From Silurus meridionalis (lineage: Eukaryota > Chordata > Actinopteri > Siluriformes > Siluridae): DNA of 64,000 nt. This document shows positions 15,870 to 49,908 of the stretch, piece by piece. Positions within the stretch are counted from its first letter, which is position 1. Every line of letters begins with the position of its first letter. The notes below the pieces were generated by a model. The model was given only the letters and a program-made list of their open reading frames with translations, was not told where the DNA came from and did no database searches. Position numbers and translations under genes: made by a program. Where the stretch lies: positions 12,711,463-12,775,462 of the forward strand of contig NC_060887.1 in NCBI RefSeq assembly GCF_014805685.1. The letters are read 5' to 3'.

Positions 15870-16038
15870 ATGCATTTCCAAGCTGTGTTCTGCATTCTGC
15901 TTCTGCTGACATGTACAGGTGAGCACTGACCTGAGCAAGAAGAAGAAGAATATAGTAAGTAATTACAGTGTAGCCTCATTCAGCATATTGTGTAGAGGGA
16001 AAACTAACAACAACATTTACATGTACTATTTGTTTCCA

Positions 16039-16079
<41 letters not shown>

Positions 16080-17112
16080 TTATTAATAAAGAGTAAACTG
16101 ATGTTTGTGTGCATGAATTCTTGTTACTTGTTTTACTATTGTGTTTCTGTGTTGCCATATTTGTTTCTTCACACAGGAGTATCCTTTGGCCAGCAGCTGT
16201 TATTACCTGAGAGGATGGATATAAAAGTTGGGGAGAACCTGGTGATTACCCCAATCAGCATTCCTGATTCCTCACGTCTTTCTGCCAAATGGTACTATAA
16301 CGGAACTCTATTTCTTACTGAAACTCCCTCAGAAATTATAATACAGCCACCGTACACTGACAGAGCCAGTCTGAACACCAACACTTTAGCTCTGACTCTC
16401 AAAAGACTGACTGAGAGTGATTCTGGACAATATACTCTGGAAGTAGTCGCTGTTACAGAAACTATTACAAGCGTGACATCGGTGCAGGTGTTTGGTGAGT
16501 ATACAAAACTTTTCGTTATAAAACCTTTCAGGAAGAATCTTTCACAGAGTGGTTCATCTGTGTCCTTATTCTGTAAATACAAAGAAATTCCTTTACTGTG
16601 TACATTTAATATGACAGCAGAGGCTTCACTTGTTTAAAACGTAAAAAACTGTTTACTAAAGTCCCTCTATTATTTGTTAATCTTGATTTAAAGAAAAAAA
16701 AAATAGTAGTAATCGATGAGTTCCAATATTTAGTCAGGCCTGTAATGTAATGTAATGCTGTTAAAAGTGTTTAAAAACGTAAATATATCTGTAACAGTCA
16801 GTCGATTAGAGACAGTTATTCAGTTTGAGCCTACAATAATGGTTTAAAAAATAAATGTTGTAAGCAAACTAATTATAACATTCATAAAGTATTAACATTG
16901 ATTTCTTATTTCTAAAACGTATTATTATTATTTTATCTATTATAACTTTTCCTTCTGATGAAATAGCAGACATTGCAAATGCTGACCTGAACATAGAAGT
17001 GTTTTCATGTTCATATTTATCAGGAAAAACTGAAAATTGCATTTGAAATATTATAATTAATAAAAATCTTGTGAAAAAAGTTCTAAAGGTTAGAGGAAAT
17101 AATAATAATAAC

Positions 17113-46800: not shown

Positions 46801-49800
46801 CATCCTTTTCTGGTATCAATCAACTCAGTGATCCTTTTTTAGTAAATAATATAGGACAGAAAGCCAAGGGATACAAGCTCCAGGTGCAAGATGCATTTTA
46901 ATGTGATGTGACTGTTGCTGGGATGATGACAGTGGTAGTAATAATCAGGCTTACTTACATAGTGTTTTTTTTTTATGATGAACAATACTGTGATTTACCA
47001 TTGTACCTTTAGTAAATGCTAAATGAAGAATAATTAATGTTATCACATTGGTTAAAAATAAACCCAACCAGTTGTCCCTTATGCCACCAAAGCAACTCTG
47101 ACCCATGTGTGTATATGTTGGTTTGTCTGTGTTTCAGCTATAAAAAAATACAACTATAACTTTTTAAAACTATTGCTAATCATATTTCAGTCGAATCTGA
47201 CAAGTGCAGGGATAAAATTCAAGTCAAGTCAAGTCAAGTTTATTTGTATAGCGCTTTTCACAACAGACATTGTCTCAAAGCAGTTTAACAGAAATCAACA
47301 GTCAAGGTGAACGGTGTGCATTTATCCCTGTTGAGCAAACTCCCTTAGATGTTATAAGGAAGAAACCTTGAGAGGAACCAGACTCAAAAGGGGAACTAAT
47401 CCTCATTTGGGTGACATCAAGAGTTTGATCATAAATCTTTCAACAATACAGAACACTGGAGAGTGAGAACTAACATGAGCACTGGAGTATGAGATTATAA
47501 GCAAATGTCCTTTCTACAGTCTTTGGTATAAAAGTAGGAGCTACTGAGCTCAACATTTGTGATCATCACAGATCCAGCAACAGCTTCTCCATGCCAGAGC
47601 CTTTAAACACTTTAGGAGGTCCAATGTCAAAACTCCACACATGTAGTGGGATCCACTTGGCACTGGTACGTCTCTAGATGGTTCAGGATGTTTGCGGGTT
47701 TGGCATCTACTTCTTTAAAGTCCATAATCTTTATGAGGTAGGACGTGACTGGAGCTGGCCAAACCTCAGGAAGCCTCGGGATGGGGAGAGAAAGAGAAGC
47801 AGTGGAGAGGAATTAGCGTAGCTGCTGTTCATGATATTAACAGCACAAGTTGATAATGTGCATGTGATCAAATGTTCTGGAGCACAAGGTTATGATGTGA
47901 TGTGTGTTATGTGTAGGCTTTGCTAAAAAGATATGTTTTTAATCTGCACTTAAACTGGGTGAGTGTGTCTGAACCCTGAACACTGTCAGGAAGCCTATTC
48001 CGGAGTTTAGGAGCTAAATGTGAAAATGCTCTACCACCTTTAGTGGACTTTGCTATTCTAGGAACTACTAGAAGTCCAGTGTTTTGAGATCTCAGGGAGC
48101 GTGATGGATTGTAGCGTGTTAAAAGACAGGAGAGATACATGGGAGCCAAACTATTTAGTGCTTTATAAGTGAGTAGCAGTAGTTTGTAGTCTATTTGAAA
48201 CTTAACCGGAAGCCAATGTAGGGACGATAAGATTGGGGTTATGTGATCATATTTTCTTGATCTTGTAAGAACTCTTGCTGCCGCATTCTGAACTAACTGA
48301 AGCTTGTTTATTAATGACGCAGGACATCCACCTAGTAATGCATTACAGTAGTCTATTCTGGAGGTCATAAACGCATGGACGAGCTTCTCTGCATCGGATA
48401 TAGATGACATATTTCTTAGCTTAGAAGTATTTCTAAGGTGAAAAAAGGCTGTTTTTGTAACTTGGTTGATATGATTTTTAAAAGATAAGTTGCTGTCTAA
48501 AATAACTCCCAAGTCTTTTACTGTTGAACTAGTGGTTACAGAACATCCGTCTAAATGCAGATTGAGATGCTGGTGCTTCTGTATACTAGTTTTTGGGCCG
48601 ATGAAAAAAGAATTGGCAGAAAGTGATCAGTCAATTCTCAAAGTTGATGTGTTGTAAGCAGAATGTATTCCTAAATGTAAGAGTTTGGTCTTGTGGTGTG
48701 TTTCTAGTATGCAGTGATTAGTATTTGATAAAACTGGTCCAAGAAAAGAAAACATTGGCACAGTGATTGAATCAGCATGCTCATGCTGACCACAGTGCAC
48801 CACCAAAAGCTTCAACAATGGGCATAAGAATTTAAACATGGAGCAATGAAAGAAGATGGCCTGGTCTGATAGAGCACTTTTTTTTTTACATCATGTGTGC
48901 CAGCTGTGTGCATAGAAAGAAAGGGCACAGGATGCAAACTGGATAGTTGTTGTGATGCCCTGGGCATCTGCTCTGAAACCTTGAGCTGTAGCATTCATGT
49001 GGATACATACCACCTTCCTAGACATTGTGTCAGACCAAGTTACAACCCTTCAGGACTTCCCTTAAAACTGTAGGCAACTGGATATAATAACAGAAATTAT
49101 CAGGATAATTTGTCCTGAATATTTACACTGTTCAGGAATGGTTTATTCACTTTTCAGAATATTCAGAAATGATATAGGGAAAATGACCAAGGCCTCCAAA
49201 CTCCCCAGATCATAATTCAATAGAGTATTTGTGGAAGGTCCTGGACGAACAAGTTCAATCCATCGTGTTGTTTTGAAATTATGTTCTGCAATTTGCTGTG
49301 TTGTTATAATGTGTAAATAAAAAAAAAAGGTTGTTATTACTAAAACACTAAAACTCTTTGTTATAGGAGTTGCACTATGCCGACATCACGCATAATCAAA
49401 GGCATCAAGGAAATGCCATGCCAAATAATCCCACACCTTCCCATGTGTCTCAGCAAAGTAATATTCAGGTAAACTGACCTGCTTTTTTTAGTTAAAGGCC
49501 TAGATCAGGTTTCATCACAGTTATAACAGCTTAAACAGAGACATGTAGAGTGTGCAGTTCCTTCATTTCTTTTTTCCCTAATCTTTTAGTAATTTGACTA
49601 GTGTTAAGCCACAACAACATTAGATCCCTTGTTTGACATGCACATGTGCACACGAGCAACTAAATGAGGCTCTAAAAAAGAGTATGATGTACTAGTAGGG
49701 CTGAGCAAACTATTGAGTAGTAATATTTAATTATTACTCAAGTAAAAGTAAAATGGACTCATATAATTAGCATATTATGAAATAAAACAAATCAATTGTG

Positions 49801-49908
49801 TGAAGATTAGGATTGCACACTGCAGCATAACTTCTACTTTATCTTTTACAGCCAGCATCTAATCCTGCATCACAAACTATTTATTCTAATGTGAGGAACA
49901 TGAAATAA
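37520..49908 (+). CDS. CEACAM-like inhibitory Ig receptor C with ITIM and ITSM
   Basis: Ten exons give an open 506-aa frame: 37520-37568, 37902-38219, 39223-39501, 39633-39899, 41255-41530, 45267-45384, 46310-46347, 46552-46568, 49367-49468 and 49852-49908. All junctions are GT/AG and phase-consistent. Signal peptide MHLHAVFCILLLLTCTG. Cysteine-less V-type N domain 17-122, I-set 123-215, C2-type 216-304, second I-set 305-396 with its cysteines, membrane helix about 409-432 rich in small residues (AGIVIGVIVGVAAIAGLI). The tail holds an ITIM, LHYADI (Tyr458), and an ITSM, TIYSNV (Tyr499), 41 residues apart near the C-terminus. Such tails recruit SHP-1/SHP-2 or SAP-type adaptors in mammalian receptors, so an inhibitory surface receptor is inferred. 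Possible polyadenylation signals (AATAAA) at 49907 and 49987. Confidence 0.88.
37746..37804. repeat. (GA)n microsatellite in intron 1 of gene C
   Basis: A GA tract about 100 bp before the N-domain exon; longer than in A or B. Confidence 0.95.
39023..39110 (+). pseudogene. Relic of an extra I-set exon in gene C
   Basis: Keeps an acceptor (CCCCAG) and about 85 bp aligned to the start of the real I-set exon at 39223 (TTCAACAACACTGTTAGTCT). Small deletions put it out of frame, and it ends after the first third of the domain. It matches the relic in copy A. Confidence 0.75.
40606..41043. mobile_element. Small DNA transposon in gene C intron
   Basis: The ends are inverted: CACCAGGCATAACATTATGAC at the left; TTATAATGTTATGGCAG and CCTGGTCAGTGTA at the right. 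It is a deleted derivative of a mariner-like fish family and has no usable frame. Confidence 0.65.
41584..41745 (+). mobile_element. tRNA-derived SINE
   Basis: Box A-like TAGCTTATTGG and box B-like AGTTCAAATCC head a body ending GGATTAGGGGCGTCTGCCAA. Lies in gene C's intron after the second I-set exon. Confidence 0.7.
42980..44534 (-). mobile_element. Complete Tc1/mariner element in gene C intron
   Basis: The ends CAGGGAGTGCAGAATTATTAG and TAATAATTCTGCACTCCCTG are inverted and flanked by TA on both sides (42978-42979 and 44535-44536). A second pair of inverted GCCTAATAATTATGCAC motifs lies inside. Length 1555 bp. Its transposase gene runs on the minus strand, opposite to gene C. Confidence 0.93.
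43435..44316 (-). pseudogene. Tc1/mariner transposase pseudogene
   Basis: Minus strand. The N-terminal frame 44316-44134 begins MGQKKDLTGSEKSKIVRYIA and holds a helix-turn-helix. Frames then shift. 43878-43435 carries the catalytic half: GGVLVWAGI, FMQDNAPSHT with the second aspartate, and PPCSPDLNPIENLW with the last catalytic residues. At least two frameshifts separate the halves, so no active protein is expected from this copy. Confidence 0.88.
47217..48612 (-). mobile_element. Rex1/Babar-like LINE, 5' truncated
   Basis: Minus strand. An open stretch at 48512-47907 (201 codons) encodes the reverse-transcriptase C-terminal region: MGVILDSNLSFKNHINQVTK, SRIDYCNALLGGCPASLINK, LQLVQNAAARVLTR and LSSLHWLPVKFQIDYK. 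The 3' end at about 47217 has the typical ATTTGTATAGCGCTTTT sequence and an imperfect (CAAGT)n tail. It sits in gene C's long intron before the ITIM exon. Confidence 0.88.

What the first reader, a model, noticed from the sequence alone, without database searches (positions are those of the whole stretch)
15870..49908. Paired-receptor architecture: matching ectodomains, unrelated tails
Genes B and C share almost identical leaders, signal peptides, N, I-set and C2 exons. After the membrane exon their tails do not align. B has a tyrosine cluster (EYEQ, DEYYVNF, QYETALYEQ); C has ITIM plus ITSM. This is the layout of paired activating/inhibitory receptors such as mammalian CEACAM1/CEACAM3 or Siglecs, here in a fish. 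The partner or pathogen ligand is unknown.
Basis: partly seen in the sequence, partly recalled or inferred. Interest (0 to 1): 0.75.

Follow-up and report, generated by a model that had tools for sequence, protein, structure and literature searches.

The report
Catfish paired CEACAM immune receptor genes
Two neighbouring catfish genes encode cell-surface receptors with nearly the same outer part but different inner signalling tails, one with stop-type motifs and one without, an arrangement known from mammals and frogs in the same CEACAM family and here seen in several catfish genera.

Summary
The window is southern catfish (Silurus meridionalis): gene C's spliced protein is 100% identical over 506 aa to the entry "CEACAM1-like isoform X1". 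B (402 aa, 9 exons) and C (506 aa, 10 exons) are intact CEACAM gene models. B/C synonymous divergence is 0-0.06 in leader, N, I and C2 exons but 0.36 over 27 membrane codons. Among catfishes the ectodomain trees group by genus, while the membrane+tail tree splits by tail class: the signature of paired receptors kept alike by gene conversion or recombination. Two corrections. The tails are not simply unrelated: the first cytoplasmic exon aligns, exon phases match, and several catfish B-type tails align with characin ITIM tails (weaker). And B has no ITIM, ITSM or ITAM; its one recognisable site is YVNF, a YxN and YxxF motif, so "activating" is unproven. Expression of B is not shown. Paired CEACAMs are described in mammals, frogs and, in a preprint, reptiles; five searches of an open-access library listed no fish report. 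New variant of a known kind.

The parts
15870..15918 (+). gene B leader exon (signal peptide)
   Evidence: 47/49 nt identical to C
16177..16494 (+). gene B N (V-type, no cysteine) exon
   Evidence: 300/318 nt identical to C
17477..17755 (+). gene B I-set exon
17885..18151 (+). gene B C2 exon
20360..20474 (+). gene B transmembrane exon (donor GTAAAT, next exon enters in phase 2; read-through would give Leu-stop)
20855..20892 (+). gene B cytoplasmic exon c1, same size and phase as C's c1
21855..21877 (+). gene B cytoplasmic exon c2 (ATVSEYEQ)
22482..22550 (+). gene B cytoplasmic exon c3 with YVNF (YxN and YxxF)
22683..22733 (+). gene B cytoplasmic exon c4 (ERQYETALYEQTSVHG, stop)
37520..37568 (+). 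gene C leader exon
37902..38219 (+). gene C N exon
39223..39501 (+). gene C I-set exon 1
39633..39899 (+). gene C C2 exon
41255..41530 (+). gene C extra I-set exon, no counterpart in the B model
45267..45384 (+). gene C transmembrane exon
46310..46347 (+). gene C cytoplasmic exon c1
46552..46568 (+). gene C cytoplasmic exon c2
49367..49468 (+). gene C cytoplasmic exon c3 with LHYADI (broad ITIM)
49852..49908 (+). gene C cytoplasmic exon c4 with TIYSNV (ITSM), stop
15651..16500 (+). homology block 1 of B with C (37259-38225): upstream region, leader, intron 1, N exon, ending 6 bases past the N exon
17434..18180 (+). homology block 2 of B with C (39179-39928): I-set, intron, C2; 91.2%
1952..9760 (+). 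gene A, a third copy with a B-type tail; I-set exon broken (TGA at 3509-3511, acceptor AG reads AA), early stop in c4, no leader exon recognised in the window
10291..12316 (+). further matches to B after gene A: a C2-exon region 96.4% identical to B's, a c1-like piece and 3' matches; a partial copy (A') and/or the far end of gene A

Best explanation
B and C are a paired set of CEACAM receptors. C is the CEACAM1-like inhibitory member (ITIM + ITSM, expected to recruit SH2 phosphatases). B is the partner without inhibitory motifs: recombination or gene conversion keeps its ligand-binding ectodomain like C's, while it carries an older, separately inherited membrane segment and tail. B's YVNF motif most likely acts as a GRB2-type (pYxN) docking site and/or a tyrosine endocytic signal, so B would take up or report ligands, perhaps microbial adhesins, that engage the same N-domain face as C. 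Shown here: gene models, block-wise homology, class-specific tails under genus-specific ectodomains, B/C differences clustered on the modelled GFCC'C'' face. Inferred: ligand sharing, cell type, signalling route, decoy role.
For: CEACAM identity: for gene C the best PDB sequence hits are CEA (E 7.3e-86) and CEACAM1 (1.1e-43) (B not run there); for both genes the protein hits are mostly fish proteins named CEACAM. Young ectodomain, old tail: dS leader 0, N 0.061, I 0.040, C2 0.034, TM 0.358; 9 of about 215 synonymous sites changed against 6.5 of 22.8, Fisher p 0.001 (rounded to 6 of 23) or 0.0002 (7 of 23). Trees: the N tree joins Silurus B+C 100/100 and T. vachellii YxN+ITIM 97/96; the TM+tail tree splits by class 100/99. 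AU tests reject one YxN clade in the N tree (p 1.3e-42) and same-species pairs in the tail tree (Silurus 0.0063, I. punctatus 0.0004, T. vachellii 0.0006). The I+C2 tree also groups by genus. 11 of 12 N-domain differences lie in the C-C'-C''/F-G ranges of the gene C model (46 of 105 residues, p 0.0004; strands only, 10 of 12 in 39 residues, p 0.0008).
Against: No expression evidence for B: the 402-aa B model was not listed by any of three protein searches (120 of 270, 13 of 13 and 120 of 272 hits shown); the S. meridionalis entry nearest in identity, P0019 (90%), is a partial protein ending just after the membrane helix. No ITAM in B. B and C lie on the same strand, whereas frog, crocodile and several mammalian pairs lie in opposite orientation, although some turtle decoys share CEACAM1's orientation. 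The N-domain differences sit on the presumed binding face, so ligand sharing may be partial. dN is at or above dS in I and C2 (0.057/0.040, 0.072/0.034; few changes), which could also mean relaxed constraint. In 5 of 10 listed catfish B-type tails the first motif (SxYENI) still fits the broad ITIM consensus (one search list, read by eye), so the class need not be purely non-inhibitory. The AU tests and the face ranges were chosen after the trees and the differences had been seen. The TM dS rests on 27 codons.
Confidence: 0.62

Rival explanations
1. Ordinary recent tandem duplicates: B and C are two CEACAM paralogs whose tails diverged by drift, with no functional pairing.
For: The window itself holds a further, partly broken copy A and a partial copy A'; teleost CEACAMs are reported to expand by local duplication (PMC3628338 passages).
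Against: Uniform divergence after one duplication does not give dS 0-0.06 in four exons and 0.36 in the next, nor a tail class shared with other catfish genera under genus-specific ectodomains.
Confidence: 0.12
2. B is an adhesion-only or decoy protein: transcripts end at the membrane exon (read-through gives Leu-stop), so the tyrosine tail is rarely or never used.
For: An S. meridionalis paralog (P0019) and other catfish entries (P0031 Neoarius, P0110 Clarias) end there. CEACAM1-derived genes without the signalling tail are proposed as decoys in terrapins (PMC13278318 passages).
Against: c1-c4 of B are open with GT-AG splice sites, and complete B-type tails are annotated in Ictalurus, Pangasianodon, Tachysurus, Hemibagrus and Clarias.
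Confidence: 0.15
3. B-type tails remain inhibitory or dual: YxN tails derived from ITIM tails still recruit phosphatases, so both members restrain cells.
For: 5 of 10 listed catfish B-type tails keep SxYENI, which fits the broad ITIM consensus (one search list).
Against: In S. meridionalis B the site reads EYYVNF, which fits neither ITIM definition used.
Confidence: 0.11

Closest known systems
Mammalian CEACAM1/CEACAM3 (human) and CEACAM1/CEACAM28 (dog) paired receptors
   Same: Closely related N domains on an ITIM/ITSM protein and on a protein with another tail; in the dog pair the high-similarity region covers upstream sequence, leader exons and intron 1, as in block 1 here (PMC2832619 passages).
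   Different: The mammalian partners carry ITAM-like tails, described there as replacement of the last cytoplasmic exons by those of an ITAM-encoding ancestor; B has no ITAM and its tail is probably a modified ITIM tail.
Xenopus Ceacam paired receptors
   Same: ITIM member and partner with another tail class, N domains 80-93% identical in protein (B/C here 89%), gene conversion, changes concentrated in CC'C''FG (PMC5112662 passages).
   Different: Frog partners have ITAM or ITAM-like motifs and opposite gene orientation; B has a YxN/YxxF site and the same orientation as C.
Marsupial ITAM CEACAMs and CEACAM20 with a GRB2-like YxN motif
   Same: A YxN motif in a CEACAM cytoplasmic tail (PMC2832619 passages).
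   Different: The marsupial proteins also have a canonical ITAM; B does not.
Channel catfish IpLITR 1.1b
   Same: A catfish Ig receptor whose tail holds a YxN site that its authors propose as a GRB2 site (PMC4810170 passages).
   Different: Another receptor family; its tail also carries ITIMs and an ITSM.

Membership tests
CEACAM family | Sequence kinship to CEA/CEACAM over the Ig domains | tested here: met
   Gene C: CEA 7.3e-86, CEACAM1 1.1e-43 in PDB (the two printed alignments start at C residues 74 and 79, within the N domain). Both genes:
CEACAM family | V-type N domain without the canonical cysteines (feature recalled) | tested here: met
   No Cys in the B and C N exons (translation); their V-set and other Ig matches stay below Pfam cut-offs
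CEACAM family | Leader/N/IgC/TM/cytoplasmic exon order with regular phasing | tested here: met
   not compared base by base with a mammalian gene
CEACAM family | Synteny with known CEACAM marker genes | not testable with these tools
   No marker gene was identified in the window; own-genome search unanswered
Paired receptors | Very similar ligand-binding domains encoded in one cluster | tested here: met
   N 88.6% in protein, 300/318 nt, about 21.7 kb apart
Paired receptors | Ectodomain homogenised, tails separately inherited | tested here: met
Paired receptors | One inhibitory and one activating tail | tested here: inconclusive
   C fits broad ITIM and ITSM; B has none of the three classic motifs, only YxN/YxxF
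Paired receptors | Shared ligand, co-expression | not testable with these tools
   needs binding and RNA data
CEACAM3-type ITAM receptor | ITAM Yxx(L/I) x6-8 Yxx(L/I) | tested here: not met
   also with spacing 6-12; no second Yxx(L/I/M) site in B's tail for the CEACAM3-like variant either (Y contexts)
Siglec | Cysteine-bearing V-set with a sialic-acid arginine (recalled) | tested here: not met
   No Cys in the N domains; arginine not examined. Among the 60 of 176 PDB hits shown the only siglec is CD22 domains 6-7, matching C residues 177-283; the Pfam CD22 model is below its cut-off

The most novel reading that the evidence does not exclude
Catfishes built a paired-receptor system without an ITAM: an ITIM/ITSM CEACAM tail was itself rewritten, in place, into a GRB2-type YxN tail, and the ectodomains of the two tail classes have since been homogenised separately in Silurus, Ictalurus, Tachysurus and Pangasianodon. 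This would be a route to paired CEACAMs different from the exon replacement described for mammals; percomorph CEACAMs with YENTSxxYEN-type tails could be a parallel case.
Probability: 0.45. Interest if true: 0.68.

Novelty: new variant of a known kind. Interest (0 to 1): 0.56.

Why it matters
Paired CEACAMs are read as a trace of conflict between hosts and pathogens that exploit CEACAM1. The 2016 Xenopus paper says that the presence of paired receptors in non-mammalian families, bony fishes included, had not been investigated, and five searches of the open-access library listed no fish report. The same design in several catfish genera, with a YxN rather than an ITAM tail, would extend the pattern to teleosts and would give aquaculture species (status recalled) in which CEACAM1-binding fish pathogens could be sought.

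Tried and rejected
Rejected: Siglec membership (no cysteine in the N domains; best hits are CEACAM). Rejected: two haplotypes of one gene (introns, inserted elements and membrane exons differ). Rejected: an ITAM in B (spacings 6-8 and 6-12 both empty). Weak or contrary results: hhalign of the two tail classes was unconvincing (probability 2.9%, P 0.016). The good tail alignments are the best of 130 pairs (10 B-type by 13 ITIM tails) and cover c3, not the ITSM exon; S. meridionalis B against the five characins gave z 6.5, 4.4, 3.7, 3.3 and 0.5; the T. vachellii B-type tail matched none of the five well (best z 2.3), and the two Clarias tails matched only one (z 4.1 and 3.6). An HMM of 39 non-catfish ITIM tails (first 34 residues) gave the two Ictalurus B-type tails 8.9 bits (1 of 500 shuffles as good each), S. 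meridionalis B 5.2 (5 of 500), Pangasianodon 3.6 (7 of 500) and the other six 12 to 253 of 500 as good, against 10.2-23.5 bits for seven catfish ITIM tails. So the descent of B's tail from an ITIM tail rests mainly on the pairwise matches to characins. A conversion after the split from S. asotus could not be shown: five Silurus N domains form an unresolved group. The I. furcatus YxN row matches the I+C2 query only at 31% and is a long-branch misfit; the AU test there (p 2.2e-08) included it. The helix pattern missed the membrane helix in 79 of 180 proteins, some of which have one. Foldseek ranks other Ig proteins (neurofascin, contactins, titin) above CEACAMs, so the fold alone does not identify the family. 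Pfam found nothing for 3 of 5 stretches outside the CEACAM exons.
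Full report
WHAT IS THERE. Both gene models were rebuilt from the sequence. Gene B has nine coding exons between 15870 and 22733 and encodes 402 aa: leader, N, I-set, C2, TM and four cytoplasmic exons. Gene C has ten coding exons between 37520 and 49908 and encodes 506 aa, with one more I-set exon (41255-41530). All internal splice sites are GT-AG and phases agree. [quoted passage not shown] this gives the species and supports the C model. The 402-aa B model was not listed in three searches (120 of 270, 13 of 13, 120 of 272 hits shown). The S. meridionalis entry nearest in identity is P0019, a partial protein, 90% over 80% of B.

FAMILY. For gene C the best sequence matches among solved structures are CEA (E 7.3e-86) and CEACAM1 (1.1e-43). 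The protein hits of both genes are mostly fish proteins named CEACAM. Neither N exon encodes a cysteine. The AlphaFold model of C has mean pLDDT 80.5, with most Ig-domain blocks above 90 and the tail below 50. Foldseek ranks other Ig proteins first; human CEACAM6 chains stand at ranks 8 and 28 of the 50 shown, with TM 0.74 and 0.79 by target length. The fold fits but does not single out the family.

THE PAIR. B and C share two strong blocks: upstream region, leader, intron 1 and N exon (15651-16500 with 37259-38225, 81% over 971 columns with gaps), and I-set, intron and C2 (17434-18180 with 39179-39928, 91.2%). Beyond them, at E 1e-5, there are only a 79.6% match over 108 columns at the TM exon and cross-matches of B's I-set exon to C's second I-set exon and to a decayed I-set piece at 39017-39107. 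Synonymous divergence (my own Nei-Gojobori count) is 0 (leader), 0.061 (N), 0.040 (I) and 0.034 (C2), then 0.358 in 27 TM codons. The contrast is significant although the TM sample is small. Of 12 N-domain amino-acid differences, 11 lie in the C-C'-C'' and F-G ranges read off the model, 46 of 105 residues (p 0.0004); the ranges were drawn after the differences were known. The Xenopus study describes this face as the putative interaction site and as changing fast after conversion (PMC5112662 passages).

OTHER CATFISHES. The 180 retrieved proteins, many of them predicted or partial models, were printed with their ends. Two catfish tail classes appear: ITIM/ITSM tails like C's (Ictalurus, Tachysurus, Pangasianodon, Neoarius, Trichomycterus) and YxN tails like B's (Ictalurus, Tachysurus, Pangasianodon, Hemibagrus, Clarias). 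I picked 22 proteins by hand (18 catfish including B, 4 characins); 20 of them had a usable N domain (the Pangasianodon gigas YxN and Ictalurus furcatus ITIM rows dropped out). The N tree groups by genus: Silurus B+C 100/100, T. vachellii 97/96, Ictalurus 94/90. The TM+tail tree of all 22 splits by class, 100/99. AU tests, run after the trees were seen on groups set by tail class or species, reject one clade of YxN rows in the N tree and same-species pairs in the tail tree for Silurus, I. punctatus and T. vachellii. The I+C2 tree again groups by genus: P. gigas YxN with P. hypophthalmus ITIM 89/89, Ictalurus (3 rows) 99/97, T. vachellii 88/96, Silurus 95/56; one misfit row, I. furcatus YxN, stands apart. 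So old tail classes sit under ectodomains homogenised within each genus. In Hemibagrus, Clarias, Neoarius and Trichomycterus only one class was seen.

THE TAILS. By the motif definitions printed in PMC2832619 and PMC13278318 (passages), C has a broad-sense ITIM and an ITSM; B has no ITIM, ITSM or ITAM, but one site, YVNF, that is both Yxx(L/M/V/I/F) and YxN. C's ITSM tyrosine is also followed by xN (YSNV), so a YxN alone does not set B apart; the loss of ITIM and ITSM does. The tails are not wholly unrelated: c1 aligns, and exon number and phases match. B-type c3+c4 segments align with characin ITIM segments (Ictalurus P0030 with Colossoma P0062: score 68, z 10.9, 0 of 300 shuffles; S. meridionalis B with Acnodon P0066: score 49, z 6.5, 0 of 300; the best of 130 pairs), not with catfish ITIM tails; profile methods gave weak support and some B-type tails none. 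The likeliest history, inferred, is that the YxN tail is a rewritten ITIM tail. ITIM-type tails occur in mormyrid, salmonid, characin and percomorph rows, so ITIM is the better guess for the ancestral state; fish CEACAMs with ITIM/ITSM are mentioned as unpublished results in PMC2832619 (passage). None of the 85 tails that a script could class fits the ITAM pattern (of 180 proteins, 79 without a recognised helix, 16 with short tails). I noticed no zebrafish name in the lists; ITAMs in zebrafish CEACAMs are reported by PMC3628338 (passages).

MECHANISM. Inferred: C restrains cells on ligand binding through its ITIM/ITSM. B presents nearly the same N domain without those motifs; phosphorylated YVNF would dock GRB2-type SH2 domains or act as an endocytic signal, so that a microbe exploiting C could be taken up or reported through B. 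A catfish LITR with a proposed GRB2 YxN site is a precedent in another family (PMC4810170 passages). None of these signalling steps is shown here.

GENE A. Upstream lies gene A with a B-type tail but an older N domain (dS to B 0.49) that groups with a Silurus asotus N domain (99/98). Its I-set exon has a TGA at 3509-3511 and AA where the acceptor AG should be; no leader exon was recognised. B's N exon is like C's and not A's; its I and C2 exons are close to both (dS 0.040 and 0.034 to C, 0.073 and 0.115 to A); its TM exon is like A's (0.093) and not C's (0.358). That is what is expected if B received its ectodomain, its 5' block above all, from the C lineage, or the reverse.

NOVELTY. Paired CEACAMs are described in mammals, Xenopus and, in a 2026 preprint, reptiles. 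The 2016 Xenopus paper says that paired receptors in the other families, bony fishes included, had not been investigated. Five searches of the open-access library (20 of 27 and 20 of 21 papers listed, all in the others) listed no fish paired-CEACAM report; subscription papers are mostly not held. All papers were seen as listings, abstract openings and passages only.

Noticed in passing
window 1-910: Tandem repeat with a 305-base period: first two copies 100% identical over the 300 bases compared, a third at 66%. Not explained.
   Followed up: no
window 1952-9760: Third CEACAM copy (gene A) with a B-type tail. Its I-set exon is broken, but leaving it out would keep the frame, and an S. asotus protein (P0003) also joins N directly to C2, so A might be a two-domain receptor rather than a plain pseudogene; no leader exon was found.
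   Followed up: partly
window 10291-12316: Further B-like pieces after gene A: C2 region 96.4% identical to B's, a c1-like piece and 3' matches, no TM exon match.
   Followed up: partly
window 39017-39107 and 3043-3132: Decayed I-set exon pieces just upstream of the I-set exons of C and A.
   Followed up: partly
window about 18640-20240: Tc1-like element in the C2-TM intron of B: the frame at 19102-19488 matches HTH_Tnp_Tc3_2; element limits judged by eye from inverted ends.
   Followed up: partly
window 43435-43878 (- strand): DDE_3 transposase fragment in the I2-TM intron of C.
   Followed up: partly
window 30301-31401: Open frame of 366 aa between B and C with no Pfam match; perhaps from a mobile element.
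   Followed up: no
window 56765-58184: Another Ig-type gene downstream: 57204-57485 matches Ig_3/I-set above cut-off; frames at 56780-56962 and 57819-58109 have no Pfam match. Family not determined.
   Followed up: partly
proteins P0043, P0048, P0063, P0096, P0114, P0117, P0158, P0171, P0178: Percomorph CEACAM-like proteins with short YENTSxxY(E/D)N tails, a possible independent non-ITIM tail class.
   Followed up: no
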